This document shows positions 4,350 through 63,489 of a DNA stretch of 64,000 nucleotides, in pieces. The DNA is taken from NCBI GenBank assembly GCA_036924085.1, contig JAVGWX010000009.1, positions 62,319,012 through 62,383,011 of the forward strand, given 5' to 3'. The notes under the pieces are model-generated. The model had not been told where the DNA came from, made no database searches, and was given only the letters and a program-made list of their open reading frames with translations. Origin of the DNA: Ariolimax columbianus. Taxonomy: Eukaryota > Mollusca > Gastropoda > Stylommatophora > Arionidae. Each line of letters starts with the position of its first letter. Position 1 is the stretch's first letter. Position numbers and translations under genes: made by a program.

Positions 4350-4560
4350 TAGGTTGCATTATGGGTAAGAATTTCATTACTTTTAGAATGTTACCTGGAC
4401 GGCAGCTAACAGTTTACTCTTATCGATTTTCAGCTGGCAAGAGTTCTTTTACGTGCACAGCATGTACACAGGATATCCTAGTTTTTTTTTCCATCTCCAA
4501 ATTGACTATACACTGGTTCAACCTCCGTGATACCAGGGGACACTTGAAACTTGTAGATTC
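4350..4560 (-). repeat. Degenerate tRNA-SINE-like segment
   Basis: The block with CAGCTAACAGTTTACTC and TTATCGATTTTCAGCTGGCA matches, with mismatches, the body of the SINE at 34983-35190 (CTACTCTTTTCGATTTCCAA). The right part, ending in a GATACCAGGGGACACTTGAAAC-like segment, resembles the segment next to the tRNA-like head at 10230-10365. It is strongly diverged. Confidence 0.45.
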
Positions 4561-5425
4561 TTCTTCTTCTTCTTCTTACGCTGTCAGATGTCGACCTTTA
4601 TTTTTTTGAAAAAAGCAGCGGTCATCCTGAGGCTATCGACACTGCCATAGAGCTTGTCTAGTGTTGCCACTGGTGATGGCCACATCTGCTCTCTCTGATC
4701 CTCGTATGTCGGGCAGTTTTGCAGCAAATGCTCAGCGGTCATTTTCCCGGTACTACACAAGTATTCGTCAGTGCCAACTTTCTTCAATTTGTTGAATAGG
4801 TGGTACCTCACTCTATTGTAGCCAGTGCGAAGTCTGAAGACCACGACCTGCTCTCTTCTGTTCAACTGGTAATAGGCATCGTTTTTTGTGTAGCCAGTAT
4901 GTTCTGTTTCCCATTTGATCATGTATCTAGCTCTAATAAGCCTTTTTGACTCTTCGTATGCCACACTAGTATCTGGTTGTGGTAGCCTTCTTTTGTCAGT
5001 CTGTCTGCCTCCTCGTTGCCTTGGATGTTGCAGTGCGATGGAACCCACTGTACCAATACTCTTTTTGGTGCGGACTGCTGGCATAGTTGACAGAGTTCTG
5101 CTCTTAAATCATTAAGTTCAGTATTTTTCTGGCTTTTTAGTGCTGTGACTACGGCCAGGGCATCTGTAAGCAGGACTATATGGCTTTCATTCCTTTTACC
5201 TATCAGCACTGCTTCTACTGCAGCCCTCAGTGCCTCTGCCTCCGCTCTGAAATTGCTTGAGTATTTTCCAGTTGCCACTGACAGTGTTATTTTTCTGCCA
5301 TTTGGTAGGCTCAGGAATGCTCCTGCCCCTCCGTTCTGTGTTGTGTTTGTTACAGAACCGTCGGTGTATGCATGGGTCCAGTCCATGCTTGGGTAGTTTT
5401 CCGTTATGTACCTCACGGTTTCTTT
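4561..5425 (-). pseudogene. I-group LINE 3' end: RNase H domain and C-terminal Cys/His motif
   Basis: The minus strand encodes an RNase H domain of the kind attached to I/Nimb/Jockey-group LINEs. Visible are AYTDGSV (first Asp), FRAEAEALRA (Glu), LLTDALAV (Asp) and WVPSHCNIQGNEEADRL (His, Asp). A frame change in the middle leads into EHTGYTKNDAYYQLNRREQ and the distal CSTGKMTAEHLLQNC motif; the first Cys of the usual CxCG pair is replaced. The copy ends at 4561 in a (GAA)n tail, seen as TTC repeats on the plus strand. It is 5'-truncated, which is normal for LINEs, and non-functional. Confidence 0.93.
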
Positions 5426-12040: not shown

Positions 12041-12048
12041 TACTTATT

Positions 12049-15000
12049 AGTTTTACTCCATGTATTTGTACTGTCTTCAAGTTTAGTTTTACTCCATGTA
12101 TTTGCACTGTCTTCAAGTTTAGTTTTACTCCATGTATTTGTACTGTCTTAAAGTTTAGTTTCATTCCATGTTTGTGTACGGTCTTATAGTTTAGTTTCAT
12201 TCCATGTTTGTGTACAGTCTTAAAGTTTAGTTTCATTCCATGTTTGTGTACTGTCTTCAAGTTTAGTTTCATTCCATGTTTGTGTACTGTCTTCAAGTTT
12301 AGTTTCATTCCATGTTTGTGTACTGTCTTAAAGTTTAGTTTCATTCCATGTTTGTGTACTGTCTTAAAGTTTATTTTCATTCCATGTTTATGTACTGTCT
12401 TAAAGTTTATTTTCATTCCATGTTTATGTACTGTCTTAAAGTTTAGTTTTATTCCATGTTTGTGTACTGTCTTAAAGTTTAGTTTCATTCCATGTTTGTG
12501 TACTGTCTTAAAGTTTAGTTTCATTCCATGTTTGTGTACTGTCTTAAAGTTTAGTTTCATTCCATGTATGTGTACTGTCTTAAAGTTTAGTTTCATTCCA
12601 TGTTTGTGTACTGTCTTAAAGTTTAGTTTCATTCCATGTATGTGTACTGTCTTAAAGTTTAGTTTTATTCCATGTTTGTGTACTGTCTTAAAGTTTAGTT
12701 TCATTCCATGTTTGTGTACTGTCTTAAAGTTTAGTTTCATTCCATGTATGTGTACTGTCTTAAAGTTTAGTTTTATTCCATGTTTGTGTACTGTCTTAAA
12801 GTTTAGTTTCATTCCATGTATGTGTACTGTCTTAAAGTTTAGTTTCATTCCATGTATGTGTACTGTCTTAAAGTTTAGTTTCATTCCATGTATGTGTACT
12901 GTCTTAAAGTTTAGTTTCATTCCATGTATGTGTACTGTCTTAAAGTTTAGTTTCATTCCATGTATGTGTACTGTCTTAAAGTTTAGTTTCATTCCATGTA
13001 TGTGTACTGTCTTAAAGTTTAGTTTCATTCCATGTATGTGTACTGTCTTAAAGTTTAGTTTCATTCCATGTTTGTGTACTGTCTTCAAGTTTAGTTTCAT
13101 TCCATGTTTGTGTACTGTCTTAAAGTTTAGTTTCATTCCATGTTTGTGTACTGTCTTAAAGTTTATTTTCATTCCATGTTTATGTACTGTCTTAAAGTTT
13201 ATTTTCATTCCATGTTTATGTACTGTCTTAAAGTTTAGTTTTATTCCATGTTTGTGTACTGTCTTAAAGTTTAGTTTCATTCCATGTTTGTGTACTGTCT
13301 TAAAGTTTAGTTTCATTCCATGTTTGTGTACTGTCTTAAAGTTCAGTTTCATTCCATGTATGTGTACTGTCTTAAAGTTTAGTTTCATTCCATGTTTGTG
13401 TACTGTCTTAAAGTTTAGTTTCATTCCATGTATGTGTACTGTCTTAAAGTTTAGTTTTATTCCATGTTTGTGTACTATCTTAAAGTTTAGTTTTATTCCA
13501 TGTTTGTGTACTGTCTTAAAGTTTAGTTTCATTCCATGTATGTGTACTGTCTTAAAGTTTAGTTTCATTCCATGTATGTGTACTGTCTTAAAGTTTAGTT
13601 TCATTCCATGTATGTGTACTGTCTTAAAGTTTAGTTTCATTCCATGTATGTGTACTGTCTTAAAGTTTAGTTTCATTCCATGTATGTGTACTGTCTTAAA
13701 GTTTAGTTTCATTCCATGTATGTGTACTGTCTTAAAGTTTAGTTTCATTCCATGTATGTGTACTGTCTTAAAGCTTAGTTTCATTCCATGTATGTGTACT
13801 GTCTTAAAGTTTAGTTTCCTTCCATGTATGTGTACTGTCTTAAAGTTTAGTTTCATTCCATGTATGTGTACAGTTGTAAAGTTTAGTTTCATTCCATGTA
13901 TGTGTACTGTCTTAAAGCTTAGTTTCATTCCATGTATGTGTACTGTCTTAAAGCTTAGTTTCATTCCATGTATGTGTACAGTTGTAAAGCTTAGTTTCAT
14001 TCCATGTTTGTGTACTGTCTTAAAGCTTAGTTTCATTCCATGTATGTGTACAGTTGTAAAGCTTAGTTTCATTCCATGTTTGTGTACAGTTGTAAAGCTT
14101 AGTTTCATTCCATGTTTGTGTACTGTCTTAAAGCTTAGTTTCATTCCATGTATGTGTACAGTTGTAAAGCTTAGTTTCATTCCATGTATGTGTACAGTTG
14201 TAAAGCTTAGTTTCATTCCATGTTTGTGTACAGTTGTAAAGCTTAGTTTCATTCCATGTTTGTGTACAGTCTTAAAGCTTAGTTTCATTCCATGTTTGTG
14301 TACAGTTGTAAAGCTTAGTTTCATTCCATGTTTGTGTACAGTTGTAAAGCTTAGTTTCATTCCATGTTTGTGTACTGTCTTAAAGTTTAGTTTCATTCCA
14401 TGTTTGTGTACGGTCTTATAGTTTAGTTTCATTCCATGTTTGTGTACAGTCTTAAAATTTAGTTTCATTCCATGTTTGTGTACAGTCTTAAAGCTTAGTT
14501 TCATTCCATGTTTGTGTACAGTTGTAAAGCTTAGTTTCCTTCCATGTTTGTGTACTGTTGTAAAGCTTAGTTTCATTCCATGTTTGTGTACTGTTGTAAA
14601 GCTTAGTTTCATTCCATGTTTGTGTACAGTTGTAAAGCTTAGTTTCATTCCATGTTTGTGTACTGTTGTAAAGCTTAGTTTCATTCCATGTTTGTGTACT
14701 GTTGTAAAGCTTAGTTTCATTCCATGTTTGTGTACAGTTGTAAAGCTTAGTTTCATTCCATGTATGTGTACAGTTGTAAAGTTTAGTTTCATTCCATGTT
14801 TGTGTACAGTTGTAAAGTTTAGTTTCATTCCATGTATGTGTACAGTTGTAAAGCTTAGTTTCATTCCATGTATGTGTACAGTTGTAAAGCTTAGTTTCAT
14901 TCCATGTATGTGTACAGTTGTAAAGCTTAGTTTCATTCCATGTTTGTGTACAGTTGTAAAGCTTAGTTTCATTACATGTATGTGTACAGTTGTAAAGCTT

Positions 15001-15148
15001 AGTTTCATTCCATGTATGTGTACAGTTGTAAAGCTTAGTTTCCTTCCATGTATGTGTACAGTTGTAAAGTTTAGTTTCATTCCATGTATGTGTACAGTTG
15101 TAAAGCTTAGTTTCATTCCATGTTTGTGTACAGTTGTAAAGCTTAGTT
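12049..15148. repeat. 36-bp minisatellite, about 86 units, with higher-order structure
   Basis: The unit is 36 bp (TTTAGTTTCATTCCATG, then TTTGTGTACTGTCTTAAAG). Two main variants are CTGTCTTAAAGTTT (mostly left) and CAGTTGTAAAGCTT (mostly right). Since 36 is divisible by three and stops are absent, both strands are open, giving ORFs of up to 1091 codons with 12-residue repeats. There is no other coding evidence. A block with two TTATTTTCAT variant units occurs at 12371 and again at 13163, exactly 792 bp (22 units) apart. A CGGTCTTATAG variant occurs at 12179 and 14411, 62 units apart. These point to block duplication by unequal exchange. Confidence 0.97.
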
Positions 15149-15149
15149 T

Positions 15150-17984: not shown

Positions 17985-18440
17985 ATGCCCACAATGAGTA
18001 GGTTACTCTTTAGTGCCATGAAAAGGAAGTTAAGTGGTGGGTTGCAGTAGCATTACTCACATCCCGAGCTTGCTGATGAAGGTCGACCATGGGTCCTCTA
18101 GTCAGTTGTGCTATGCTTGGTTTCATCTGTACATCGCTCACAACTGCTGCCTTGCAGTTAGGCTGGGGACAGCCAAAGGCTAAGGAGGGCAACCCTACAG
18201 AAACGCCTGTTGAAATCGGATGCACTGAGCCACTGGCTAACAAATTAAATCGGTGCAACGTAAATATCGCTGTAAACAGCGTACGATGAAGAAGAAGTAC
18301 ATCGCTCACTACTATGGGGATCACATCGATCCCTCACCTCTTTATCCAGGCTGCCATGAAAATAGCCTATTTCCAGGGAGGGCTACCAGGAGGCCGAGGT
18401 GAGGGTCTTGGCCAGTATATTTTGCCTGGCCAGACTTTAG
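17985..18440 (-). repeat. Family C SINE-like repeat, interrupted by a 155-bp element
   Basis: Same family as 45036-45350 and 47058-47375. Plus-strand landmarks are GAATGCCCACAATGAGTAGG, TAAGTGGTGGGTTGCAGTAGC, GGTTGTGCTATGCTTGG and GGTCTTGGCCAGTATA. In reverse orientation its GCCTGG-TAA-GGGATCGATG block matches the equivalent block of family B, so I assign sense to the minus strand by analogy. Continuity breaks at 18141/18297. Confidence 0.8.
18142..18296 (+). mobile_element. 155-bp element sharing both ends with the I-group LINE, 13-bp TSD
   Basis: GTACATCGCTCAC flanks it at 18129-18141 and 18297-18309. Its first 120 bp match 24947-25075 (CTGCTGCCTTGCAG, then GGGGACAGCCAAAGGCTAAG, then AACGCCTGTTGAAATCG), immediately upstream of the LINE endonuclease frame. 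Its end CAGCGTACGATGAAGAAGAA matches the LINE 3' end CAGCGTACGAAGAAGAAG. It is therefore either an internal-deletion derivative of the LINE or a SINE that shares its ends and uses its reverse transcriptase. Confidence 0.9.
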
Positions 18441-20311: not shown

Positions 20312-20960
20312 TTGGTGTCACACAAAGAAAATGAAAGCCATATAGACCTGCTTACAGATGCTCTCGCCGTAGTCACAGCGCTAAAAAGCCAGAAAAACAC
20401 TGAGCTTAATGACTTAAGAGCAGCACTCTGCCAACTGTGCCAGCAGTCCGCACCAAAAAGGGTAGTGGTACAGTGGGTCCCATCACACTGCAACATCCAA
20501 GGCAACGAGGAGGCAGACAGACTGGCAAAAGAAGGTGCAAGACTACCACAAACAGATACTAGTATGACGTACGAAGAGTCAAAACGGCTTATCAAAGCCA
20601 GATACATGACCAAATGGGAAACCGAACATACTGGTTACACCAAAAACGATGCCTATTACCAGTTGAACCGAAGAGAGCAGGTCGTTGTCTTCAGACTTCG
20701 CACTGGCCACAATAGACTGAGGTACCACCTATTCAATAAATTGAAGATAGGTGGTACCGACGAATGCCCGTGCGGTACCGGTAAAATGACCGCTGAACAT
20801 CTGCTGCAGAACTGCCCGACATACGAGGATCAGAGAGAGCAGATGTGGCCATCACCAGTGGAACTGCAAGACAAGCTCTATGGCAGTGGCGGCAGCCTCA
20901 GGATGACCGCCGCTTTTTTCGAAAAAATAATGGTTACTGTCTGACTGCGTACAAAGAAGA
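20312..20960 (+). pseudogene. I-group LINE 3' end (RNase H), open 210 codons
   Basis: The RNase H half from LLTDALAV onward is intact: WVPSHCNIQGNEEADRLAK, then EHTGYTKNDAYYQLNRR and the C-terminal ECPCGTGKMTAEHLLQNC motif (CxCG, H, C). It ends shortly before TGCGTACAAAGAAGAAGAAG, the family tail. It is 5'-truncated inside RNase H, so the first Asp and the Glu are missing and it cannot be active. It is the cleanest copy of this C-terminal region. Confidence 0.95.
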
Positions 20961-20984
20961 AGAAGAAGAAGAAGTTGCTGTCAA

Positions 20985-23410: not shown

Positions 23411-23850
23411 AGTTGGGGTGAAATAAATAAAATGATGTTGCGACAGCAGTGACGAAGTGGTAGGTAGTCCTCAGCCTTTAAAACCTCTCTCTACACCAGC
23501 GATGGGAATAAAGTCACATGATAGTTTTTTTAAATTGAAAATCTATATTTTTTTCTATATTTGTACATATACACTTATTTTATAGACTACAAAAGTGTGT
23601 GTGAATCGACGCACTCTATGACAACTGTTGAGACACTTTGGAATACCAAAGAAGTATGTAACCTTTATACAGGGTATGTTGGAAGATACAGTTAGCATAG
23701 TGGTACATGAAGGAGCACTGACTTGCAGCTTTAGGGTGCAAACAGGGATGTGTTCTTTCACCCAACCTGTTCTTGTTGGCTAAAGGTTGGATAATGAATA
23801 ATTTGACTCAACACGCCAACACTGTAATGATTGACAGGCCGAGAGCACTT

Positions 23851-24490
23851 TCGTTGGGTCTAATATGGAACGTGTGCTGGAATTAGACCCTCGGAAAACA
23901 GGTCAGTTTTACCCTACTAATGACATCGCGTTGCTACGGTAGTCCTGCTTAATCAGAGAGGAATCGCAGGTTTCAGACACTTGGTCATTGACTGACTAAT
24001 AGCTCTCTCTTGATTCGTTGGGTCTAATAGGGAACGGGTGATGGTATTAGACCCTCGGAAGACAGGTCATTTTTACACTACTAATGACAGGGCGTTGCTA
24101 CGGTAATCCTGCTCAATCTGAAAGGAATCGCAGGTCTCAGACACTTGGTCCACGTGCTTGGCTGATAAGCCAATGGTGCGAGGCTACCTACTGAGGGATT
24201 ACGGCCGAACGCCTCTAAGCCGGAATCCCGCCCTGAATCTCAGCACCGCTGCGACGGGAGGCAACGATATGGTTGGGACCTGGGGCTCACGTCTCAGCCC
24301 AACCCGGTCGAGCTGCAGAAAGAGGTCTCTGCCGTCCTGCCGATCAAAGCGGGCGGGGAGCTGCCCAATATTCACCCCATACGGCGTTGAGGTGTGAAAC
24401 CACTAGTAGAAGACTTAGTTCTCAGTCGGGGTGTCATAAGCAGTAGAGCACCTCACTGCGAACTGTTGAGACTCAGCCCTTGATCATGAG
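23851..24490 (+). pseudogene. 28S rRNA 3'-end pseudogene with internal tandem duplication
   Basis: The 3' domain of large-subunit rRNA is recognisable: TAATAGGGAACG, TTTTACACTACTAATGAC, GTAATCCTGCTCAATCTGAA, GGAATCGCAGGTCTCAGACA, GTGCTTGGCTGATAAGCCAA, then GCCGAACGCCTCTAAGCCGG and AATCCCGCCC. Near the end CGGGGTGTCATAAGCAGTAG, CTGCGAACTGTTGAGACTCA and GCCCT match the final bases of 28S. The sarcin-ricin loop consensus AGTACGAGAGGAA is altered to AATCAGAGAGGAA in the first copy and AATCTGAAAGGAA in the second, so it cannot be functional rRNA. Positions 23851-23986 are repeated from 24015 (offset 164 bp). Only the second copy continues to the 28S 3' end. The LINE starts some 450 bp downstream in the same orientation. 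Confidence 0.9.
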
Positions 24491-24945
24491 ATATGTCCGC
24501 ACACCAGGCGAACAACATCTCCGTGCCATGACCAGGTTAGTCCCCTGGTTAAATGCACTCCTGCCTCGTTCTTTACCTCTGTCTGTTATAAGTCATCCCA
24601 ATGGACGCAGAAGAGATGCAGGCCAGCGGACATTGCACCTCTGCCCTATTGTGACAACCTCTCAGGTGGCGGGGAATACTAGGCGTACCATCACTGCAGA
24701 GGAGCCGAGAAAATAAAGGGAGCAAAGAGATACCCCACTCACATGCATATGTTACGTTTCTGGCAGGACGTTACGATCCTGGGACACAGACACACTGGAC
24801 TGCTTATCTTCCGGGATATTTGAAAAACTAGTACATACAGTCCATCATATCATATCATATCATCATCACACCCTATAGACACGAGTGGTGAAGACTCGAT
24901 AGTCCTGCAAGACAACTTCCCTAAGAGAGACAACTCTGACCATAA
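24491..24945 (+). other. Segment between 28S end and LINE, possible LINE 5' region
   Basis: An open frame of 78 codons (24480-24716) has no recognisable domain. ATCAT-type microsatellite repeats lie at about 24844-24872. This may be LINE 5' untranslated or ORF1 remnant sequence, or rDNA spacer carried with the 28S piece; the sequence alone does not decide. Confidence 0.35.
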
Positions 24946-25103
24946 ACAACTGCTGCCTTGCAGATATGCTGGGGACAGCCAAAGGCTAAGGTGGGCTTCC
25001 CTACAGAAACGCCTGTTGAAATCGTATGCACTGGGCCACAGGCTTAACGAAACAGTGCAACGTATATCGCTGTATGATGATGTTACAACCTAACAGACAA
25101 AAG

Positions 25104-25870
25104 TATGGTGCTCATCCTGTGGAGTCTCGCCAGGCAGCGAGAGTGCCGGACCCCACGACTCGAAGGGGCCCACCCAATGCTACTGGTGGTCACCCACCCA
25201 TGTGTTGTGGAGTCAAGGCACAAGGTGATGGGGCAAAAACTATTGACCAAAAACTCAAGACCCTCAGAATACTACAGTGGAATGCGGAGGGAGTCATTAA
25301 CAAAAATATTTCCCTAACACATCACCTGCATGAAGGCAAGATTGACGTGGCATGTATCCAAGAAACGCACCTCAACAACAACTACAGATTCTCAATCAGA
25401 GGATACCAGACCTTCCGTTTTGATAGAGAAGGTCACAAAGGAGGGGTTCTGATACTGACACGTAACTGCATACAGAGTAGCGCGGTAGCTGTCAATCACA
25501 CTGGACAAGCAGAAATTGTAGGAGTCGACATAATGACACAAGAAACGAAGATCCGCATCTTCAACCTGTTTGGCCCACCCAACAAAGACCTGTCGCTCTC
25601 GACTATGGAAATCAAGGACTCCAGCTGCCTAGTGGTTGGAGACTTCAACAGCCACTCGGAGAGATGGGGATATTCGAACACAGACAACTGAGGTGATGAA
25701 GTGGAAGACTGGGAGATAGACACAAATCTCTATATTTCTTATCAATAGGCCGGAGGACAGCCCTAGCTTCTATTCTAGAACATGGCATACCACCTCCACT
25801 CGAGACTTGGCCTTTTCCACGGTGGATATTCACCACAAAATAGACCGCCATGTGCTCAACCAATTGGCAG
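25104..25870 (+). pseudogene. LINE apurinic endonuclease domain
   Basis: From about 25257 the frame reads LRILQWNAEGV (Asn of motif I), CIQETHL (catalytic Glu), a GGVLILTR strand and LVVGDFNSHSERWG (Asp/Asn). A stop follows NTDN at 25689. The terminal SDHRP motif is broken at about 25870 by a short duplication (AGCGAGCGACCAC), and DIHHKIDRHVLNQLAG just upstream is out of frame with the start. The domain would nick target DNA in an active element; this copy is dead. Confidence 0.9.
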
Positions 25871-25985
25871 GTAGCGAGCGACCACAGGCCAATTAGGCTA
25901 GAAATTGATATGGAAGTAGGCACACAGGAAATAAAAACCGCTGCCATGTTGGAACTATAAACGAGCCGACTGGGACAGATTTGCA

Positions 25986-27500
25986 ATGCTGACAGATGGA
26001 CTGTGTGAAACCATCCACACACGAAATAACAATATGAAACCTATGGTGGAAAGTCTAAGCAAAGCAATAATGCAAGCAGCCACCGAAACCATCCCAAGAG
26101 GGGCAAGGAAAAACTACAAGCCATATTGGAATGATGAACTGCAGAAAGCGGAGGATGAAATCTCAAATGCTAAGAACATGGCAGAGAGAAAGCAATCTAT
26201 GGAGGCAAATATCGCCCTCAAGGCCATCACGGCGAAATACAAAAGAATGCTAAACCAAATAACAAAAGACAGCTGGAAAAACCAAACAGAAAGCCTCAAT
26301 TTAGATAAAGAAGGGAACAAACTATGGAATTTAGTCAGAGCCATGAATGACGAAACACTATCAAATAAACAAATTACCATCAAGCAGGGCGACAACATGT
26401 TTACTGGAAAAAAAGCAGCAAACGCCTTTATAGAACATTATGCCAGAGCAAACCACATTGATGTCCCTACAGACAGGCATACAGACATTAGTGAAGAACA
26501 AAAGAGTCCACTACAACATCAAGATGGCACCAGAGGAGCACATGATGGCAAAACTAACAATGAATGAAATGGATGAGGCCATGAGAACTTTAAAGAAAAA
26601 GAAATCGCCCAGAAAAGATGGGGTTGGGCCAAACAGCAAAGAGGAAGTTACTATCAATCCTGAACAAAAGCTGGAAAAGGGGAATTGTACCGCAGGCATA
26701 GAAAGAGGCTGTACTTATACCAGTACCAAAGAAAGAAAAAGTAAGAACAGATCCAAATGGATACAGGCCTATCAGTCTACTGAGCTGTGTAGGAAAACTG
26801 ATGGAGCGTATGATAAACACCAGACTGATGTGGCACCTGGAAGAAAAACACATACTAATTCCACAGCACGCAGGGTTTAGACAACACAGATCCACTGAGG
26901 ACCAGATCACTCTCATAGCACAGGAAATAGAGGATGCTTACCAAGAGAAAAAGCATTCAGTAGCGGTTTGGGTGGATCTAGAGAAGGTATTTGACAAGGT
27001 GTGGAAAGAGGGACTTAAAAGTCAAGCTACGAAGAAGTGAAGTATGTGGGAAAATGTACAGATGGATCAGCCACTACCTCGAAAACAGAACAGCCAAAGT
27101 ACAAGTACAAGGGCAGATGAGCAAAAAGGTGACACTGAAACAAGGAGTACCCCAAAGGGGGGGGGGGGGGGGGGGGTATTGTCCCCCACACTTTTCCTGG
27201 TGTATATAAACAATGTCACAGAGAATATACCAAGAAGAGTCCACAGTTCCATGTTTGCAGACGATCTGGCTATGTGGACCTCTGGAAAAATCTCACCGTA
27301 GCAAGAAATCTGATGCAGCAGTCCCTAACATCGTTGGAGGAGTGGGCGAACTCATTGCTGGTCAAAATAAACGAGGAAAAAACAACATGTTCGATATTCT
27401 CGCTTTCAAACAAACCACAGAACACCAAAATAAGTCTTAACGGCAAATACCTGCGGCCAAACGACAACCCAAACTACTTGGGAGTCACATTTGATTAGCG
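25986..27500 (+). pseudogene. LINE reverse transcriptase domain
   Basis: The N-terminal linker has a PYWNDELQKAEDEIS segment and a long basic helical stretch to about 26400. RT motifs follow in shifting frames: MRTLKKKKSP-KDGVGPN, ERMINTRLMWHLEEKHIL, HAGFRQHRSTEDQI, WVDLEKVFDKVWKEGL (motif A, Asp), KQGVPQ (motif B), LFLVYINNV and SMFADDLAMW (motif C, two Asp). Motif B is followed by 20 consecutive G (27157-27176), which shifts the frame. Several other frameshifts are present. Confidence 0.93.
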
Positions 27501-27501
27501 C

Positions 27502-27830
27502 ATGACATGGAAAAGTCAGATCGTGAGAAACCGAATGAAAGCCAGACAAAGAATGACAATCATGAGGAAACTTGCTGGCACAAGCTGGGGAGCAGACGAA
27601 AGAATACTAAAGAAACTGTACACTGGAAGAGTGAGACCAGTTCTCGAGTATGGCATTGCGGCATGGACAACAGCAGCAAAGGCAAACTTTGATAAAATTA
27701 GCAAACTTCAAAACCAAGCCACGAGAGTTATAACAGGAGGCATGAAGTCAACGCCAATTGTAGAACTTGAAAAGATTACAAATCTGCAATCCATGACCGA
27801 AAGAAGAGACTGCAGAGCCCAGTAGCAAGC
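27502..27830 (+). pseudogene. LINE region between RT and RNase H
   Basis: An open 107-codon stretch, MTWKSQIVRNRMKARQRM, then VRPVLEYGIAAWTTAAKA and KLQNQATRVITGGMKSTP. It matches the conserved thumb/connection region (L-YTG-VRPVLEYG; L-K-QNQA-R-I-G) of I-group LINEs. It is preceded by a stop at 27496. Confidence 0.9.
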
Positions 27831-28048
27831 AGAGAAACTCAGAATACTGACAGACCATCTAATGCATCAGTGACTAAATAGATTTGGAAATGGGAAACTA
27901 AAGCGGAGAAACTTTGCAGAAATAAGCAAAGCAACGATGAGCGAAGACCCTATGAACTCATTAACAACACCAAAGCCCATCCCTACTGTACGCAAACCTA
28001 CCTGGAAGCAGCATATCATTCCGGAGGTGGTAGAAAATATACCAGGTA

Positions 28049-28933
28049 TTGGAAACAAGAACAGCCAGAATAAAAAAAAAAAGAAGAGACATAACCCTGA
28101 GGTACATAACGGAAAACTACCCAAGCATGGAATGGACCCATGCATACACCGACGGTTCTGTAACAAACACAACACAGAATGGAGGTGCAGGGGTATTCCT
28201 GAGCCTACCAAATGGTAGAAAAATAACACTGTCAGTGGCAACTGGAAAATTCTCAAGAAATTTCAGAGCGGAGGCAGAGGCACTGGGGGCTGTGGTAGAA
28301 GCAATGCTGAAAGGCGAAAGCAATGAAAGCCAGATAGTCCTGTTTACAGATGCCCTGGCCGTAGTTACAGCACTAAAAAGCCATAAAATACTGAACAATG
28401 ATTTAAGAGCAGTACTCTGTCAACTATGCCAGCAGTTCGCACCAAAAAGAGTAGTGGTACAGTGGGTTCCATCCCACTGTAACATCCAAGGCAACGAGGA
28501 GGCAGACAGACTGGCAAAAGAAGGTGCAAGACTACCACAACCAGATTATAGTGTGACCTACGAAGAGTCCAAAAGGCTTATTAGGGCCAGATACATGGCC
28601 AAATGGGAAACATAACATACTGGCTACACAAAAAACGATGCCTATTACCAGCTGAACAGAAGAGAGCAGGTCGTGGTCTTCAGACTCCGCACAGGCCACA
28701 ATAGACTGAGGTACCACCTATTCAATAAACTGAAGATATGTGGCACTGACGAATGCACTTGTGGTACCGGGAAAATGACCGCTGAACATTTGCTGCAAAA
28801 CTGCCCGACATACGAGGACCAGAGAAAGCACATGTGGCCATCACCAGTGGCAACACTAGACAAGCTCTATGGCAGCGTCGACAGCCTCAGGATGACCACT
28901 GCTTTCTTCGAAAAAATACAAGTTGATGTTTGA
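28049..28933 (+). pseudogene. LINE RNase H and C-terminal Cys/His motif
   Basis: AYTDGSVTNTTQNGGAG (Asp), FRAEAEALGA (Glu), LFTDALAVVTALK (Asp) and WVPSHCNIQGNEEADRLAK (His, Asp) are all present. A stop at 28613 separates this from YTKNDAYYQLNRREQVV and ECTCGTGKMTAEHLLQNC. The four catalytic acids are kept, so this part decayed less than the RT. It ends at a stop before the (GAA)n tail. Confidence 0.95.
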
Positions 28934-28999
28934 CAGCGTACGAAGAAGAAGAAGAAGAAGAAGGATAATGAATAATGACGATATTGAAAGATCGGTAGA

Positions 29000-38555: not shown

Positions 38556-39434
38556 AAAGAAGAGACATAACCCTGAGGTACATAATGAAAAACTACCCAA
38601 GCATGGACTGGACCCATGCATACACCGACGGTTCTGTAACAAACACAACACAGAACGGAGGGGCGGGGATATTCCTGAGCCTCCCAAACGGTAGAAAAAT
38701 AACACTGTCAGTGGCAACTTGAAAATACTCAAGCAATTTCAGAGCGGAGGCAGAGGCACTGAGGGCTGCAGTAGAAGAAATGGTAACAGGCAAAAGAAAT
38801 GAAAGCCATATAGTCTTGTTTACAGATGCCCTGGCCGTAGTCACAGCACTAAAAAGCCAGAAAAATACTGAACTTAATGATTTAAGAGCAGTACTCTGTC
38901 AACTATGCCAGCAGTTCGCACCAAAAAGAGTAGTGGTACAGTGGGTTCCATCCCACTGTAACATCCAAGGCAACGAGGAGGCAGACAGACTGGCAAAAGC
39001 AAGGTGCAAGACTACCACAACCAGACCCTAGTGTGATCTACGAAGAGTCAAAAAGGCTTATTAGAGCTAGATACATGACCAAATGGGAAACAGAACATAC
39101 TAGCTACACAAAAAACGATGCCTATTACCAGTTGAACAGAAGAGAGCAGGTCGTGGTCTTCAGACTTCGCACAGGCCACAATAGACTCAGGTACCACCTA
39201 TTCAATAAATTGAAGATAGGTGGCACTGACGAATGCTCGCGTGGTACCGGGAAAATGACCGCTGAGCATTTGCTGCAAAACTGCCCGACATACGAGGATC
39301 AGAGAAAGCAGATGTGGCCATCACCAGTGGCAACACTAGACAAGCTCTATCACTATGGTAGTGTCGATAGCTTCAGGATGACCGCTGCTTTTTTCGAAAA
39401 AATACAGGTTGACATCTGACGAAGAAGAAGAAGT
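38556..39434 (+). mobile_element. 5'-truncated I-group LINE with 14-bp TSD
   Basis: GAATTTATTCTTTC flanks it at 38542-38555 and 39435-39448. It encodes the RNase H (AYTDGSV region from 38620, FRAEAEALRA, LFTDALAVVTALK, WVPSHCNIQGNEEADRLAK) with one stop at about 38721 and a frameshift at about 39000. It then continues YTKNDAYYQLNRREQVV to SRGTGKMTAEHLLQNC, and ends in (GAA)n. The first Cys of the C-terminal motif is Ser. A HYG insertion near 39350 is specific to this copy. Confidence 0.97.
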
Positions 39435-39448
39435 AGAGAATTTATTCT

Positions 39449-40675: not shown

Positions 40676-41016
40676 TTAGACAGTACAGGGAAAATAATAA
40701 GTGAGAATAGGGAGGCAGCTAATCTGATCAATCAGTACTTTGGCACAGTCTACACAAAATAGGACTGCTCCAAGATCCCAGAGCCTCTAGATATTTTTCA
40801 AAGAGACATGTATACAGTGGGATTAAGATCAATCTGTATTACAGAGAAAATGGTTTTTAAAAAATTGGAGGGGTTGAAAGTGAATGTCCAGGTCAAGATG
40901 GTATTCATCCAAAATTGCTGTATGAAATTAGAGACCAACTAGCAAAACCATTGGCTATATTATGTTCTCAATCACTTACAAAAGGGATTGTTCCACGGGA
41001 TTGAAAAGATGCAGGA

Positions 41017-41850
41017 GTGATCCCCTTATTCAAAAAAGGCAAAAAATCAGATCCAGCAAATTATAGACCGGTGAGTTTAACGAGCATAGTCTGTAAATTG
41101 TTACAGTCAATAATCAAAGAAAACATTGTAATGCATTTAGACAAATTTAATCTAATTAGAAATAGTCAGCATGGGTTTACTAGAGGGAAATCATGCTTAA
41201 CAAATCTATTAGAATTCATGGAAGAGGTTACTAAAATCATAGATAAAGGGGAGCCAGTGGACGTTATTTATCTAGACTTTGCAAAGGCCTTTGATAGAGT
41301 ACCTCATCAAAGATTATTTCGAAAGTTAAAATCACATGGAATAGGTGGGGAAGTTACCAAATGGATTGAAAATTGGTTAACGGGAAGAAGGCAGAGGGTG
41401 GGCATAAATAAGGAGTACTATGAGTGGTGTGATGTGAAAAGTGGTGTGCCGCAGGGCTCGGTTTTGGGACCAATTTTGTTCTTGATATATATAAATTATA
41501 TGGACATTGATATGGGATCCATGATTGCAAAATTTGCTGATGACACAAAACTATGCAGTAGTGTCTCATCTAAAGCGGAAGTGGATATATTGATGTCGGA
41601 TTTAGATAAAATTCGAGAATGGTCTGTAAGCTGGCAAATGGAGTTTAATGTAGATAAATGTACAGTCATCCACGTGGGTAGATCCAATATGGAACATAAT
41701 TATAGAATGGGAGAAAACAATATTAGAAAGATAGATAAGGAAAGGGACCTAGGGGTTATAATAGATCATACAGGAAAGGTGAGTGAGCAAGTTAAGGTAG
41801 CAGTGAAAAAGGCAAATGCAATGTTAGGTATGATAAAAAAGAAATATTAA
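41017..41850 (+). pseudogene. CR1-like reverse transcriptase, 277 codons open
   Basis: Motifs run in order: PLFKKGKKSDPANYRPVSLT, then HGFTRGKSCLTNLLEF, VIYLDFAKAFDRVPH (motif A, catalytic Asp), SGVPQGSVLGPILFLIYIN (motif B), KFADDTKLCSS (motif C, both Asp) and ERDLGVIID. All catalytic acids are intact. The start Met is simply the first after a stop at 41004 and lies inside the RT finger region, so it is not the true start. The frame ends at an AAAAAAGAAA run, and the remainder (42 kb fragment) is in another frame. It would copy element RNA at a nicked target; this copy lacks its own endonuclease. Confidence 0.93.
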
Positions 41851-47971: not shown

Positions 47972-48002
<31 letters not shown>

Positions 48003-48890
48003 CTTCTTCTTCTTCTTCTTCGTACGCTGTCAGACGTCAACCTGAATCTGTTCGAAGAAAGCAGCTGTCATCCTGAGGCTGTCGACAGTGCCATAGAGAT
48101 TGTCCAGTGTTGCCACTGGTGATGGCCACATGTGCCTTCTCTGGTCCTCGTATGTCGGGCAATTTTGCAGCAGATGTCCAGCGGTCATTTTCCCTGTACC
48201 AAAGGTGCATTCGTCCGTGCCACATATCTTAAGTTTATTAAATAGATGGTACCTCAGTCTGTTGGGGCCTGTGCGAAGTCTGAAGACCACGACCTGCTCT
48301 CTTCTGTTCAACTGGTAATAGGCATCATTTTTTGTGTATCCAGTATGTTCTGTTTCCCATTTGGTCATGTATCTGGCCCTAATAAACCTTTTGGACTCTT
48401 CGTAGATCACACTAGAATCTGGTTGTGGTAATCTTGCACCTTCTTTTGCCTCCTCGTTGCCTTGGGTGTTACAATGGGATGGAACCCACTGTAACACTAC
48501 TCTTTTTGGTGCGGACTGCTGGCATAGTTGACAGAGCACTGCTCTTAAATCATTAAGTTCTGTTTTTTTCTAGCTTTTTGCACTTCTTGTTCAACCTCTT
48601 CGTTATTCTCGAAACGCCTCCTGTCGTACTATTGCAGTTGCTACACTTCCTATAGTTACTCGTCTATCAGCACGAATCATCTCGTCTATCCGTCGTACAG
48701 ATTGTTCTGTTGCAATCTCAACATGACGACCAGATCAGGCTTCATCAGCAATCTTTTCGCGTCCTTGAGAAGAAAATGTATCAACCCACTATGCACATCT
48801 TTACGCGTCAAAAACTTCTTACCGTAAATAGAAAGTATTTCCTTATGAATATACGTAGTGTAAATCGTTTTATGTCATTTTTTACTTGAG
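47835..48890 (-). pseudogene. Mariner-like transposase, internally deleted and split by a LINE
   Basis: In minus-strand order it shows a degenerate N-terminus (YGKKFLTRKDVHSG), then VEIATEQSVRRIDEMIRADR and RVTIGSVATAIV of the helix-turn-helix region. The text then jumps to the C-terminal RRFENNEEVEQE. After the LINE insertion it continues VRIWLGQRTNDFCAAGFDAG and EQWDTCINVCGNYVE. The catalytic DD(34)D core between these parts is missing, an internal deletion of the sort that produces MITEs. Frameshifts are present in the N-terminal half. Confidence 0.85.
47979..48579 (-). mobile_element. 5'-truncated I-group LINE inside mariner, 9-bp TSD
   Basis: GCACTTCTT occurs at 47970-47978 and 48580-48588. 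On the minus strand it encodes WVPSHCNTQGNEEA, then a deletion of the DRLAK segment, YTKNDAYYQLNRREQVV and ECTFGTGKMTAGHLLQNC (second Cys lost, Glu to Gly), and ends in a long (GAA)n tail (plus-strand TTC from 47975). The truncation is deeper than in the copies at 4561 and 38556. Confidence 0.96.
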
Positions 48891-51529: not shown

Positions 51530-53540
51530 GCGTCCTAACAGAATTATCTCAAAAATCAGCGTATAACTAGAGAGATATTTGACTAGCACAGCGATCCAGC
51601 GTCTAACTAAAGAGATATTTGACTAGCACAGCGATCCAGCGTCTAACTAGAGAGATATTTGACTAGCACAGCGATCCAGCATCTAGCTAGAGAGATATTT
51701 GACTAGCCCAGCGATCTAGCGTCTAACAGAGATATTTGACTAGCACAGCGATCCAGCGTCTAACTAGAGATATATTTGACTAGCACAGCGATCCAGCGTC
51801 TAACTAGAGAGATATTTGACTAGCACAGCGATCCAGCGTCTAACTAGAGAGATATTTGACTAGCACAGCGATCCAGCGTCTAACTAGAGAGATATTTGAC
51901 TAGCACAGCGATCCAGCGTCTAACTAGAGAGATATTTGACTAGCCCAGCGATCCAGCGTCTAACTAGAGAGATATTTGACTAGCACAGCTATCCAGCGTC
52001 TAACTAGAGAGATATTTGACTAGCACATCGATCCAGCGTCTAACTAGAGAGATATTTGACTAGCACAGCGATCCAGCGTCTAACTAGAGAGATATTTGAC
52101 TAGCCCAGTGATCCAGCGTCTAACTAGAGAGATATTTGACTAGCACAGCGATCCAGCGTCTAACTAGAGAGATATTTGACTAGCACAGCGATCCAGCGTC
52201 TAACGAGAGATATTTGACTAGCCCAGCGATCCGGCGTCTAACTAGAGAGATATTTGACTAGCACAGCGATCCAGCGTCTAACTAGAGAGATATTTGATTA
52301 GCCCAGCGATCCAGCGTCTAACTAGAGAGATATTTGACTAGCACAGCGATCCAGCGTCTAACGAGAGATATTTGACTAGCACAGCTATCCAGCGTCTAAC
52401 TAGAGATATTTGACTAGCACAGCGATCCAGCGTCTAACTAGAGAGATATTTGACTAGCCCAGCGATCCAGCGTCTAACTAGAGAGATATTTGACTAGCCC
52501 AGTGATCCAGCGTCTAACTAGAGAGATATTTGACTAGCACAGCGATCCAGCGTCTAACGAGAGATATTTGACTAGCACAGCAATCCAGCGTCTAACTAGA
52601 GAGATATTTGACTAGCACAGTGATCCAGCGTCTAACTAGAGAGATATTTGACTAGCACAGTGATCCAGCGTCTAACTAGAGAGATATTTGACTAGCACAG
52701 AGATCCAGCGTCTAATTAGAGAGATATTTGACTAGCACAGAGATCCAGCGTCTAATTAGAGAGATATTTGACTAGCACAGCGATCCAGCGTCTAACTAGA
52801 GAGATATTTGACTAGCACAGCGATCCAGCGTCTAACTAGAGAGATATTTGATTAGCCCAGCGATCCAGCGTCTAACTAGAGAGATATTTGACTAGCACAG
52901 CGATCCAGCGTCTAACTAGATATTTGACTAGCACAGCGATCCAGCGTCTAACTAGAGAGATATTTGACTAGCACGGCGATCCAGCGTCTTAATAGAGAGA
53001 TATTTGACTAGCCCAGCGATTAAGCGTCTAACTAGAGAGATATTTGACTAGCACAGTGATCCAGCGTCTAACTAGAGAGATATTTGACTAGCACAGCGAT
53101 CCAGCATCTAACTAGAGAGATATTTGACTAGCACGGCGATCCAGCGTCTAACTAAAGAGATATTTGACTAGCACAGCGATCCAGCGTCTAACTAGAGAGA
53201 TATTTGACTAGCACGGCGATCCAGAGTCTAACTAGAGAGATATTTGACTAGTACAGCGATCCAGCGTCTAACTAGAGAGATATTTGACTAGCCCAGCGAT
53301 CCAGCGTCTAACTAGAGAGATATTTGACTAGCACAGCGATCCAGCGTCTAACTAAAGAGATATTTTACTAGCCCGGCGACCCAGCGTCTAACTAGAGAGA
53401 TATTTGACTAGCACAGCGATTAAGCGTCTAACTAAAGAGATATTTGACTAGCACAGCGATTAAGCGTCTAACTAAAGAGATATTTGACTAGCACAGCGAT
53501 TAAGCGTCTAACTAAAGAGATATTTGACTAGCACAGCGAT
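51530..53540. repeat. 40-bp minisatellite, about 49 units
   Basis: The unit is AGCGATCCAGCGTCTAACTA, then GAGAGATATTTGACTAGCAC. Units differ by single substitutions (CACAG/CCCAG/CACGG; CGATC/TGATC/CGATT) and a few lack GAGA or a whole half-unit, breaking any reading frame. The left edge (51470-51560) is degenerate (AGTATCTCAAGAACCAGCGT), and a CGATTAAGCG variant dominates the right end (53420-53520). Confidence 0.97.
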
Positions 53541-53880
53541 TCAGCTGTTCAACGATCACTACACCGTGGACGAGGAGAACAGGCACCAATCTTCTATTCT
53601 GTGACAATCCACATAACGGTTCGTCTATCAAGTTGTAGTTCGTAATAAAGTTTCTTTTAGTTTAGTTTAGTTCATAATTTATTACAGCCTGGCAAGGTTT
53701 GTTTTGAGTGAAGATTGGTGAGTCAGTTGTGAACGTGTAGAAATAACGTTTCATTGTTGTGTTTTATTTCCAATTAGTGTCGTAGTCAATTTGTTTAAAG
53801 TGGGAACATAGTTAGTGCAGACCCATTGCACCATGTGCTACGGTAGGTCAGCTGGAGCTGCTACACTAAGAAAAAATAAT
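53541..53880. other. Spacer with TTTAG repeats
   Basis: TTTAGTTTAGTTTAGTT at 53658-53674. No gene is seen. Confidence 0.4.
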
Positions 53881-55644: not shown

Positions 55645-56230
55645 TAAGGAAGATAACGACAGTCGACTTTGTAGTTAGGAAGAAGTGAGGACCAGACTCT
55701 GAAATGGATCTTTGCCTTGTGCCCTTACACTAACGCAGTCATCTCCCTTTTAACATCTCTATTGAGCAATGACAGTCGACTTTGTAGTTAGGAAGAAGTG
55801 AGGACCACAGACTCTGAAATGGATCTTTGCCTTGTGCACTTACACTAACGCAGTCATCTCCCTTTTAACATCTCTATTGAGCAATGACAGTCGACTTTGT
55901 AGTTCGGAAGAAGTGAGGACCACAGACTCTGAAATGGATCTTTGCCTTGTGCCCTTACACTAACACAGTCATCTCCCTTTTAACATCTCTATTGAGCAAT
56001 GACAGTCGACTTTGTAGTTCGGAAGAAGTGAGGACCACAGACTCTGAAATGGATCTTTGCCTTGTGCCCTTACACTAACGCAGTCATCTCCCTTTTAACA
56101 TCTCTATTGAGCAATGACAGTCGACTTTGTAGTTCGGAAGAAGTGAGGACCACAGACTCTGAAATGGATCTTTGCCTTGTGCCCTTACACTAACACAGTC
56201 ATCTCCCTTTTAACATCTCTATTGAGCCGC
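55645..56230. repeat. 115-bp tandem repeat, 5 units
   Basis: Exact 115-bp spacing of the ATTGAGCAATGACAG block (55761, 55876, 55991, 56106, and the right edge at 56221). The unit includes GACTTTGTAGTTCGGAAGAA and TGGATCTTTGCCTTGTGCCC. Units are almost identical, so the expansion is recent. Confidence 0.95.
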
Positions 56231-61419: not shown

Positions 61420-61935
61420 GAGATTTCGGCCGGTAAAATACAATTACTAGCCTGGAGGTTTTAAACTCTAATCCCTTTGGGACTCCAGACACTTCTCTCA
61501 ACGTTCTCGCCATTGTTGGAAGAATTTCATAAAGGTCTCTTTGGGAATGGAGTACGCGTTCCGAATAATGTCTTATTGTGACACAAATCGGGTTCCTTGC
61601 AGCTTGGGGAACAGCCAAAAATGGCGAGGAGCCATGTCGGGAGAACGGGGAACCTGGCGAACCAGAGGAAGGTTGTGTTTAGCCAAGAAAGTATATTTCA
61701 GATGCGAAGAATGAGTGGCTGCGTTGTCACGATGGAGTTGCCAGGTTCTTGTTGTCCACAGGTCCAGTCGTTTGTATCGAAAAACATCATGAAGGTGATA
61801 GATGACCTACAGGTAGCGCTTTTTGATGTTTGACCTTGTCGTGCGTACTCCTGGTGCACAACCCCAGGGGAGTACAAGAAAATGGTCAACATGACTTTGA
61901 CATTGATGCGCACATGGTGAATGAAAACACGACGG
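61420..61935 (-). pseudogene. Mariner-like transposase fragment (mos1-like group)
   Basis: On the minus strand VRINVKVMLTIFLYSPGVVH, QEYARQGQTSKSATCR, WTCGQQEPGNSIVTTQ (frame-shifted equivalent of the HHDNAPAHS segment), then FGTRTPFPKRPL and a degenerate C-terminus. Of the catalytic triad, the first Asp lies outside the fragment. Several frameshifts. It abuts the minisatellite at its 5' side. Confidence 0.8.
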
Positions 61936-61939
61936 GTGT

Positions 61940-62368
61940 TCACTTCACTTAACACTGACAGGCTGACTACCAGCGCCTGACGGGTACTTACTACACTCAA
62001 CACTGACAGGCTGACTGCCAGCGACTGACGGGTACCCACTACACTGACAGGCTGACTACCAGCGACTGACGGGTACTCACTACACTGACAGGCTGACTAC
62101 CAGCGCCTGACGGGTACTTACTACACTCAACACTGACAGGCTGACTGCCAGCGACTGACGGGTACCCACTACACTCAAAACTGAAAGGCTGACTGTCAGT
62201 GACTGACGGGTACTCACTACACTGACAGGCTGACTACCAGCGACTGACGGGTACTCACTACACTGACATGCTGACTGCCAGTGACTGACGGATACTCACT
62301 ACACTCAAAACTGAAAGGCTGACTGCCAGTGACTGACGGGTACTCAGTACACTCAACACTCACGTACA
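61940..62368. repeat. Compound 40-60-bp tandem repeat
   Basis: Units of GACAGGCTGACTACCAGCGA, CTGACGGGTACTCACTACAC with or without a TCAACACT extension, about 10 copies. The two unit lengths alternate irregularly. Confidence 0.93.
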
Positions 62369-62369
62369 T

Positions 62370-63489
62370 GACGGCCCACTATACCTCACTGCCGAAGGAC
62401 AACACCCATGACGCCCCACTATACCTCACTGCCAAATGACAACACCTATTATGGCCCACTATACCTCACTGCCGAAGGACAACACCCATGGTGGCCCACT
62501 ATACCTCACTGCCGAAGGATAACACCCATGACGGGCCATTATACCTCACTGCCGAAGAACAACACTGATGACGGCCCACTATACCTCACTGCCGAAGAAC
62601 AACACCCATGACGGGCCATTATACCTCACTGCCGAAGAACAACACTGATGACGGCCCACTATACCTCACTGCCGAAGAACAACACTGATGACGGCCCACT
62701 ATATCTCACTGCCGAAGAACAACACCCATGACGGGCCACTATACCTCACTGCCGAAGGACAACACCCATGACGGGCCACTATACCTCACTGCCGAAGGAC
62801 AACACCCATGACGGCCCACTATACCTCACTGCCGAAGGACAACACCCATGACGCCCCACTATACCTCACTGCCGAATGACAACACCTATTATGGCCCACT
62901 ATACCTCACTGCCGAAGGACAACACCCATGGTGGCCCACTATACCTCACTGCCGAAGGATAACACCCATGACGGGCCATTATACCTCACTGCCGAAGAAC
63001 AACACTGATGACGGCCCACTATACCTCACTGCCGAAGAACAACACCCATGACGGGCCATTATACCTCACTGCCGAAGAACAACACTGATGATGGCCCACT
63101 ATATCTCACTGCCGAAGAACAACACCCATGACGGGCCACTATACCTCACTGCCGAAGGACAACACCCATGACGGCCCCCTATACCTCACTGCCGAAGGAC
63201 AACACCCATGACGGCCCACTATACCTCACTGCCGAAGAACAACACTGATGACGGCCCATTATACCTCACTGCCGAAGGACAACACCCATGACGGCCCACT
63301 ATACCTCACTGCCGAAGAACAACACTGATGACGGCCCATTATACCTCACTGCCGAAGGACAACACCCATGACGGCCCACTATACCTCACTGCCGAAGAAC
63401 AACACCCATAACGGGCCACTATACCTCACTGCCGAAGAACAACACCCATGACGGGCCACTATACCTCACTGCCGAAGGACAACACCCAC
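62370..63489. repeat. 40-bp minisatellite, 28 units, with an 11-unit repeat
   Basis: Unit ACTATACCTCACTGCCGAAG, then GACAACACCCATGACGGCCC. Variant order starting at 62408 (CGCCCCAC, ATTATGGCCC, GTGGCCC) recurs at 62848, exactly 440 bp (11 units) later, so a block was duplicated. The twin 67-codon frames at 62408 and 62848 come from this. Confidence 0.97.

What the first reader, a model, noticed from the sequence alone, without database searches (positions are those of the whole stretch)
23851..24490. 28S rRNA 3' end with a tandem duplication, upstream of a LINE
The sequence matches the 28S 3' domain from the TAATAGGGAACG block to the final bases, but with many substitutions, including in the sarcin-ricin loop. 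Its first 136 bp are repeated 164 bp later. A LINE 5' region follows within about 450 bp in the same orientation. Known precedents include rRNA-derived SINE heads and LINEs near rDNA, but an internally duplicated 28S end in front of an I-group LINE is unusual. It could be a 28S-derived retroposon head, a LINE 5' UTR captured from rDNA, or a relict rDNA insertion.
Basis: partly seen in the sequence, partly recalled or inferred. Interest (0 to 1): 0.8.

Follow-up and report, generated by a model that had tools for sequence, protein, structure and literature searches.

The report
LINE with a pre-ribosomal RNA leader
The odd ribosomal RNA piece is the front end of a jumping gene family that carries a stretch of the cell's ribosomal RNA precursor at its start, which suggests that this kind of element is copied alongside, or out of, ribosome-making RNA.

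Summary
The 28S end and its tandem repeat are real, and not a lone pseudogene: they are part of the 5' leader of the LINE that follows. The window copy is one 5.16-kb insertion (23803-28962) with a 14-bp target-site duplication. In 30 of 30 loci fetched from the host genome (window included) the 28S end runs into the LINE 5' region.

The window copy is truncated. Longer copies continue upstream through 18S; 8 of 8 extended copies begin at the same base, in 7 of them about 590-640 bp before 18S (5' ETS by position). The match also runs 32-50 nt past the 28S end into 3' ETS. Further loci carry different mosaics of ETS, 18S, 5.8S, ITS and 28S. Several joins recur, at presumed RNA ends and at a 28S site that I take to be the methyl-A known to stop reverse transcriptase. 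A contig that ends in 28S has a truncated copy of the LINE family 280 bp after 28S.

Best reading: the LINE's RNA starts as, or is rebuilt from, pre-rRNA during reverse transcription. Polymerase I transcription is plausible but unproven. The open-licence papers that I searched listed no such family.

The parts
23789..23802 (+). target-site duplication, 5' copy (GGATAATGAATAAT)
   Evidence: the 14-mer occurs twice on the + strand of the window, here and at 28963-28976
23803..28962 (+). whole window copy of the LINE: 5'-truncated, decayed insertion
   Evidence: bounded by the 14-bp duplication; same structure in other loci
23803..23849 (+). 18S-derived remnant; the 5' truncation falls inside 18S
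   Evidence: matches the 18S end of the leader of other copies (window row), which continue upstream into 18S
23850..23986 (+). 28S-derived monomer A
   Evidence: two monomers in 30 of 30 loci
23987..24013 (+). spacer of the 164-bp unit, 18S-like
   Evidence: direct reading against recalled 18S; tandem unit
24014..24496 (+). 28S-derived monomer B and the rest of the 28S 3' end, to the last Rfam model position
24497..24528 (+). start of the rDNA 3' external transcribed spacer (at least 32 nt)
   Evidence: aligns with L072 and L073, which then diverge from the LINE, and with L087, the contig that ends in 28S
24529..25230 (+). LINE 5' untranslated region (downstream limit approximate)
   Evidence: shared by family copies; no Rfam match below E 0.2 apart from rRNA
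25020..25691 (+). frame with the AP-type endonuclease domain, interrupted
   Evidence: PF03372, 40 bits
26702..27040 (+). reverse transcriptase fragment, frame broken further on
   Evidence: PF00078, 55.6 bits
28034..28615 (+). RNase H domain
   Evidence: PF00075, 62.2 bits
28942..28962 (+). (GAA)n tail at the LINE 3' end
   Evidence: sequence
28963..28976 (+). target-site duplication, 3' copy
18140..18274 (+). 5'-truncated short derivative: leader region 24946-25074, then a tail ending in GAA repeats
   Evidence: same 25074/28933 join in loci such as L012 and L020
38556..39437 (+). 3' fragment of the same LINE family
   Evidence: 91.7% to 28080-28958
4558..5420 (-). 3' fragment of the same LINE family
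   Evidence: 91.2% to 28093-28959
20330..20974 (+). 3' fragment of the same LINE family
   Evidence: 88.5% to 28322-28963
48000..48579 (-). 3' fragment of the same LINE family
   Evidence: 90.0% to 28375-28963

Best explanation
This is a 5'-truncated copy of a LINE family (one ORF: endonuclease, reverse transcriptase, RNase H; 3' end (GAA)n) whose RNA leader is ribosomal RNA precursor. The longest leaders start at one fixed base about 590-640 nt upstream of 18S. They contain that spacer, most of 18S, the 28S 3' end and the first 32-50 nt of the 3' ETS, and then the LINE's own 5' UTR. Shown: the leader is inherited by many copies, is linked to the LINE or to its 3' end, and is carried by insertions with target-site duplications. 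Shown: other loci carry different rRNA mosaics, many joined to the LINE, with recurring joins. Inferred: the mosaics were made by reverse transcription of (pre-)rRNA, the enzyme jumping from the 5' end of one RNA to another or skipping inside one. Inferred: the fixed start is the rDNA transcription start, so the LINE RNA is either a polymerase I co-transcript of a LINE lying just 3' of 28S, or has its leader renewed from pre-rRNA by template switching. The tandem repeat in the window is a local duplication that one subfamily inherited.
For: Linkage: 30 of 30 fetched loci are continuous from 28S into the LINE 5' UTR; 17 of 30 run on into the LINE body, 11 of 30 join the LINE 3' end, 2 are unclear. 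Insertion: 14-bp duplication for the window copy, 12 bp in L022 and L026, only 6 bp in L023. Fixed start: 8 of 8 extended copies begin at ATCTGGGG (one lacks AT) and lose similarity upstream of it. In 7 of the 8, 18S begins about 590-640 nt further on; L028 has a mosaic in between. Rfam places the first position of 18S in L014, L015, L023 and L026, 4 of the 10 loci scanned. Independent sign that this base is the pre-rRNA start: L072 begins there, runs past the 28S end into 3' ETS, and carries no LINE in the stretch read. rRNA state: the consensus of six leaders keeps 305 of 310 conserved Rfam columns in 18S but 124 of 140 in the 28S end. Joins: five different rRNA partners abut the start base (L044/L050; L058/L064; L067; L075; L045/L056/L057/L059). 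10 of 43 matches to a 5.8S-28S query begin at one 28S site; in 8 of these 10 the flank upstream is not rRNA, and their 3' partners differ. rDNA contact: L087 holds a 28S end, 3' ETS and a sense LINE 3' fragment with a 12-bp duplication, 280 nt after 28S.
Against: No complete rDNA unit was found in the assembly. The start base and the ETS are therefore identified by position and by L072, not by a mapped promoter, and L087 is taken for rDNA only because its contig ends in 28S and goes on into spacer. Some joins recur through common descent (L058 and L064 share one), so independent captures are fewer than loci. Of 39 rRNA-block loci mapped, 14 show no sense link to the LINE's 28S tail, 5' UTR or body directly downstream in the stretch held (L044, L049 and L058 counted with their extensions). 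Dispersed copies carry no shared sequence upstream of the start base, so a polymerase I promoter is not shown to travel with them. No full LINE was found inside rDNA, only a 3' fragment. DNA-level rearrangement could make some mosaics. L070 and L077 look fresh in one 28S block (56/56, 55/56) but not in the next (48/55, 50/55).
Confidence: 0.75

Rival explanations
1. Isolated rDNA pseudogene that happens to lie in front of a LINE.
For: The window copy alone looks like a degenerate 28S end.
Against: 39 other long matches at 92-94% in the host genome among the 40 candidates scored, and 30 of 30 fetched loci are linked to the LINE 5' region.
Confidence: 0.01
2. Each chimera is a one-off: the LINE enzyme switched to rRNA during insertion, as reported for L1 with U6 or 28S, and the rRNA is not part of the transmitted element.
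For: Many different mosaics; precedent of 18 28S/L1 chimeras in PMC13174262 (passages).
Against: One and the same leader joint and the same tandem repeat occur in 30 of 30 loci, and 8 of 8 extended copies start at one base. Those are transmitted. It may still explain the extra blocks in front of the start base.
Confidence: 0.12
3. Internal promoter: the first ~50 nt of the spacer act as a promoter inside the element, and polymerase I and rDNA have nothing to do with present transcription.
For: Only ETS 1-50 or so is kept in several mosaics (L045, L056, L057, L059). Dispersed copies share nothing upstream of the start base, yet the start is constant.
Against: The same base is the 5' end of L072, which has rDNA 3' ETS and no LINE in the stretch read. 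Nothing here tests promoter activity.
Confidence: 0.3
4. DNA-level shuffling: a rearranged rDNA cluster next to a LINE was amplified, and the mosaics are recombination products or assembly artefacts.
For: Tandem repeats and inverted pieces exist (L074, L028); no clean rDNA unit was found in the assembly; L016 and L021 have runs of N upstream in the stretch held.
Against: The 40 long matches lie on 21 different contigs, and four copies checked have duplications of 14, 12, 12 and 6 bp beside (GAA)n tails. Block ends recur at places expected of RNA ends and of a modified base.
Confidence: 0.1

Closest known systems
R2 and R1 rDNA LINEs and their deletion derivatives (SIDEs)
   Same: Tied to 28S RNA; non-autonomous derivatives arise by internal deletion (title and start of the abstract of PMC3414825 in the listing).
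   Different: R2 inserts at a specific site in 28S, and a ribozyme frees its 5' end from the 28S co-transcript (same source). Here the rRNA stays in the element, copies are dispersed, and no Rfam ribozyme family reached its cut-off at the 5' end (one weak antisense twister-like match, E 0.36).
L1 chimeras with U6, 5S, 28S and other RNAs
   Same: rRNA fused, mostly in sense for 28S, to the 5' side of a LINE (passages of PMC13174262).
   Different: There 18 28S chimeras with fragments of 50-482 nt are reported. Here an rRNA leader is inherited by a family and holds spacers and 18S as well.
SINEs with 5S or 28S rRNA heads
   Same: rRNA-derived 5' part on a retroposon with a LINE tail; the short derivatives here resemble them.
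   Different: Here the LINE itself carries the same leader, and the leader is long. SINE28 was not read here (recalled; one search gave only a listing).
Ingi elements of gastropods
   Same: Ingi is common in several gastropods (passages of PMC11203168); one ORF with endonuclease, reverse transcriptase and RNase H (layout recalled for Ingi).
   Different: The passages seen describe no rRNA leader. The clade was not tested with a tree here.

Membership tests
LINE (non-LTR retrotransposon) | endonuclease and reverse transcriptase in sense, 3' tail, target-site duplication | tested here: met
Ingi clade | single ORF of about 1,200-1,300 aa: EN-RT-RNase H, no separate ORF1 | tested here: inconclusive
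   1,091 proteins at E <= 1e-20 among 7,982 scored; most of the 120 listed are about 1,200-1,330 aa with all three domains. The window ORF is broken, and no tree with reference clades was made
R2-like rDNA-specific LINE | insertion at one fixed site inside 28S | tested here: not met
   dispersed insertions with differing flanks; the one copy seen beside 28S lies 280 nt after it
R2-like rDNA-specific LINE | HDV-like ribozyme at the 5' end | tested here: not met
   no HDV-like match up to E 5 in L031 1200-1701; a diverged ribozyme is not excluded
rRNA-headed SINE | short non-coding element, rRNA head, LINE-derived tail | tested here: met
   only for the short derivatives, 11 of 30 loci; the window copy has the LINE body
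rRNA-headed SINE | internal polymerase III promoter | not tested
   no box search was made
Pol I-transcribed LINE (hypothesis) | RNA 5' end at the rDNA transcription start | tested here: inconclusive
   8 of 8 extended copies and L072 share the start base; no transcript data

The most novel reading that the evidence does not exclude
A LINE that lives on ribosome biogenesis: its RNA is a polymerase I transcript that starts at the rDNA start site, reverse transcription happens next to pre-rRNA, and the leader is renewed again and again from rRNA by template jumping. Its dispersed copies would then be a fossil record of pre-rRNA ends, modified bases and spacer evolution.
Probability: 0.4. Interest if true: 0.93.

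Novelty: new variant of a known kind. Interest (0 to 1): 0.85.

Why it matters
Retrotransposons joined to rRNA are known as single chimeras or as short SINE heads. A LINE family that transmits a pre-rRNA leader would show a new way to obtain a promoter and a place of action (the nucleolus). It would also give a natural read-out of where a LINE enzyme jumps and stops: RNA ends, processing cuts and, if right, a methylated adenosine in 28S. It also explains many scattered rRNA pieces that could mislead rDNA annotation in this genome.

Tried and rejected
Isolated pseudogene: rejected. Capture of mature 28S by a jump to its 3' end: not favoured, because homology runs 32-50 nt into 3' ETS. HDV-type ribozyme as the source of the fixed 5' end: nothing found (the weak non-rRNA matches are at chance level). 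Viral contigs: no 18S match and no LINE relative. Plasmid collection: none. Clade by tree: not done. Truncation points of 30 loci against modified rRNA sites: the window copy ends at the 18S loop that I recall as bearing m1acp3-psi, but I made no test; four others lie at leader position 1065-1085 for no known reason. The 'fresh 28S' consensus mixes two LINE-linked loci (L070, L077) with two that are not (L072, L073), so its figures (56/56, 53/55, 26/29 columns) and its tail identities carry no weight in my argument. The number of capture events is not estimated, because loci were chosen by score (40 scored of 4,780; of 53,434; of 142; of 457; of 898). Extension was done for 8 of the 11 loci whose leader reached the edge of the fetched stretch. 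Paper searches for such a family listed none; only open-licence papers are held.

Full report
WHAT IS IN THE WINDOW. Rfam finds the 28S 3' end at 24089-24494, and with lax filters up to 24496 and the end of the model. The 137-bp repeat (23850-23986, 24014-24150) is 89.8% identical. Endonuclease, reverse transcriptase and RNase H domains follow in sense. The whole thing is one insertion: the 14-mer GGATAATGAATAAT occurs on the + strand of the window only at 23789-23802 and 28963-28976. The LINE frames are broken, so this copy is dead. Other pieces of the family lie at 4558-5420, 18140-18274, 20330-20974, 38556-39437 and 48000-48579.

THE 28S PIECE BELONGS TO THE LINE. The host genome has 2.29 Gb in 401 contigs. 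The query 23831-24500 had 4,780 first-look candidates, of which 40 were scored: they gave 40 long matches at 92-100% (the window itself at 100) on 21 contigs, plus three short second pieces. In 30 of 30 fetched loci, the window included, the match runs on past the 28S end to at least 24602. Of these, 17 continue into the LINE body, 11 jump to the LINE 3' end and (GAA)n (ten from 25070-25096, one from 24602), and 2 are unclear. The second group are non-autonomous derivatives. The repeat is an inherited trait of this subfamily: two monomers in 30 of 30 loci, A against A 93.7%, B against B 94.2%, A against B 91.7%, and the two consensus sequences differ at 4 sites.

THE LEADER IS LONGER. The window copy is truncated. 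Most of the other 29 copies continue upstream into sequence that I recognise as 18S. Of 10 loci scanned, Rfam places the first 18S position in L014, L015, L023 and L026. Eight of the eleven loci whose leader reached the edge were extended. All eight begin at ATCTGGGG, one lacking AT, and lose similarity upstream of it. In seven the start lies about 590-640 nt before 18S; L028 has a mosaic in between. L022 and L026 have 12-bp target-site duplications and L023 only 6 bp. The consensus of six leaders keeps 305 of 310 conserved Rfam columns in 18S; its 28S end keeps 124 of 140. So the two parts differ in state: the 28S end looks old and drifting, the 18S part younger or renewed. Between L044 and L058, 3 of 1,100 sites differ in most of the 18S part (positions 701-1800 of that alignment), against 16 of 597 in the first 600 positions, the spacer. 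That too fits renewal from functional rRNA, although selection or an assembly effect is not excluded.

THE 3' SIDE. L072 and L073 have the same 28S end and then a stretch that agrees with the LINE leader for about 32-50 nt and then departs from it. The contig C258 ends in 28S followed by the same stretch, so I take this stretch for 3' ETS and C258 for rDNA. A search with it gave 9 of 40 scored matches that run on into the spacer (to 187 or beyond of 221) and 31 of 40 that stop at 105-130, where the LINE joint lies; these loci were not cut out, so only positions were seen. The join is therefore not at the mature 28S end. C258 also holds a 5'-truncated, sense copy of this LINE family (77% to the window LINE) with the duplication GACTGTGTAACA, 280 nt after 28S. 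This shows that the family can land where it would be co-transcribed. L072 starts exactly at the start base and has no LINE in the stretch read, which supports the start base as the 5' end of pre-rRNA.

MOSAICS. A 5.8S search gave 40 hits on many contigs (40 of 53,434 candidates scored); 12 loci were fetched. A 5.8S-28S query gave 43 matches in blocks and none of full length except its source; 14 loci were fetched, one of them the source. A 28S block gave 49 matches; 14 loci were fetched. Mapping of these 39 distinct loci (L049, L044 and L058 with their extensions) shows 25 with the LINE's 28S tail, 5' UTR or body in sense downstream of rRNA pieces. The other 14: L050, L062 and L075 show only ETS or 18S downstream in the stretch held; L064 a reversed LINE; L072 and L073 3' ETS; L074 pieces between and beside LINE tails; L076 a LINE upstream only; L065 and L078-L082 no link or a weak one. 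Some mosaics keep rDNA order (L039, L046, L060, L063, L072). Others do not (for example L045, L049, L056, L057, L059, L067).

WHERE THE BLOCKS END. Five different partners abut the start base: ITS2 (L044, L050), 28S at R1876 (L058, L064), at R2029 (L067), at R3213 (L075), and the short 18S/28S piece in L045, L056, L057 and L059 (R counts along the composite 5.8S-28S yardstick). In ITS1, of 13 loci printed, L044, L049 and L050 begin at TGGTTTT and L045 close to it; L039, L041/L042 (a duplicated pair), L047 and L048 begin at or within a few nt of GGGGTACC; L040 and L063 run on upstream, and L043 and L046 begin elsewhere. One 28S site recurs as a 3' end, at GCGTGTGC, with partners 18S 912 (L057), the start base (L058, L064), 18S 1073 (L059) and ETS 378 (L062); L060, L061, L067 and L068 run through it and L065 ends before it. 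One 28S site recurs as a 5' end: 10 of the 43 matches begin there, and those ten were the ones read; eight begin against flank that is not rRNA by my yardstick, two (L061, L067) against other rRNA. It reads TTGAAACACGGACC; Rfam puts the following ACCAAGG at model 665. I recall this as the m1A site of helix 25.1. PMC6085284 (passages) reports that m1A to be conserved in eukaryotes and to stop primer extension strongly; the sequence context is from memory. These are the places where an enzyme copying rRNA would stop or change template. Common descent reduces the independent cases: L058 and L064 share a joint. A second cluster of block starts (14 of the 43) has no explanation here.

HOW IT MOST LIKELY WORKS. 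The LINE enzyme copies an RNA that is pre-rRNA in its 5' part. Either a source LINE lies just 3' of 28S and is read through by polymerase I, or the leader is rebuilt from pre-rRNA by switching within homologous 18S or 28S. Having reached the RNA 5' end, the enzyme can jump to further rRNA fragments. New copies insert elsewhere with duplications of up to 14 bp. Which polymerase makes the RNA is open.

WHAT IS KNOWN. L1 chimeras with 28S were counted as 18 insertions in PMC13174262 (passages). R2 inserts at a specific 28S site, and a ribozyme frees its RNA from the 28S co-transcript (start of the abstract of PMC3414825 in the listing). Ingi LINEs are common in several gastropods (PMC11203168, passages). 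The protein search fits a single-ORF EN-RT-RNase H LINE; the only hit with an organism name among the 120 listed was from Littorina saxatilis, at 35% identity. The host was not identified. I found no report of a LINE family with a pre-rRNA leader in the searches.

Noticed in passing
G000 C14:13844090-13844669 and about 26 other places: Short pieces, mostly about 60 nt, of the 28S block around the R2/R1 target occur dispersed, and nine times in tandem on C14; perhaps flanks carried by R2-like elements.
   Followed up: no
one search hit list: 14 of 43 matches to the 28S query begin at query 1280-1336, a second recurrent block start in 28S besides 1118-1133.
   Followed up: no
L058 (C5:92539500-92552000): An element of about 7.9 kb with a nearly complete LINE and a 28S block in front of the start base, sitting in satellite DNA; its LINE body is 84.6% identical to the window's, so at least two LINE subfamilies share the leader plan.
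   Followed up: partly
L044 and L058: 18S part nearly identical between the two copies (3 differences in 1,100 sites) while spacer and downstream leader differ by about 3%.
   Followed up: partly
12047-15149: 36-bp minisatellite, 86 copies, with very long open frames on both strands; probably not coding.
   Followed up: no
51557-53545, 55658-56227, 61931-63488, 1-592: Further minisatellite arrays with periods 40, 115, 41-48 and 40, and 63.
   Followed up: no
41005-41850: A second frame that reads like a reverse transcriptase (281 aa); family not tested.
   Followed up: no
L074: Several rRNA pieces, in both orientations, beside and between LINE 3' tails, as if one insertion event joined many templates.
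   Followed up: no
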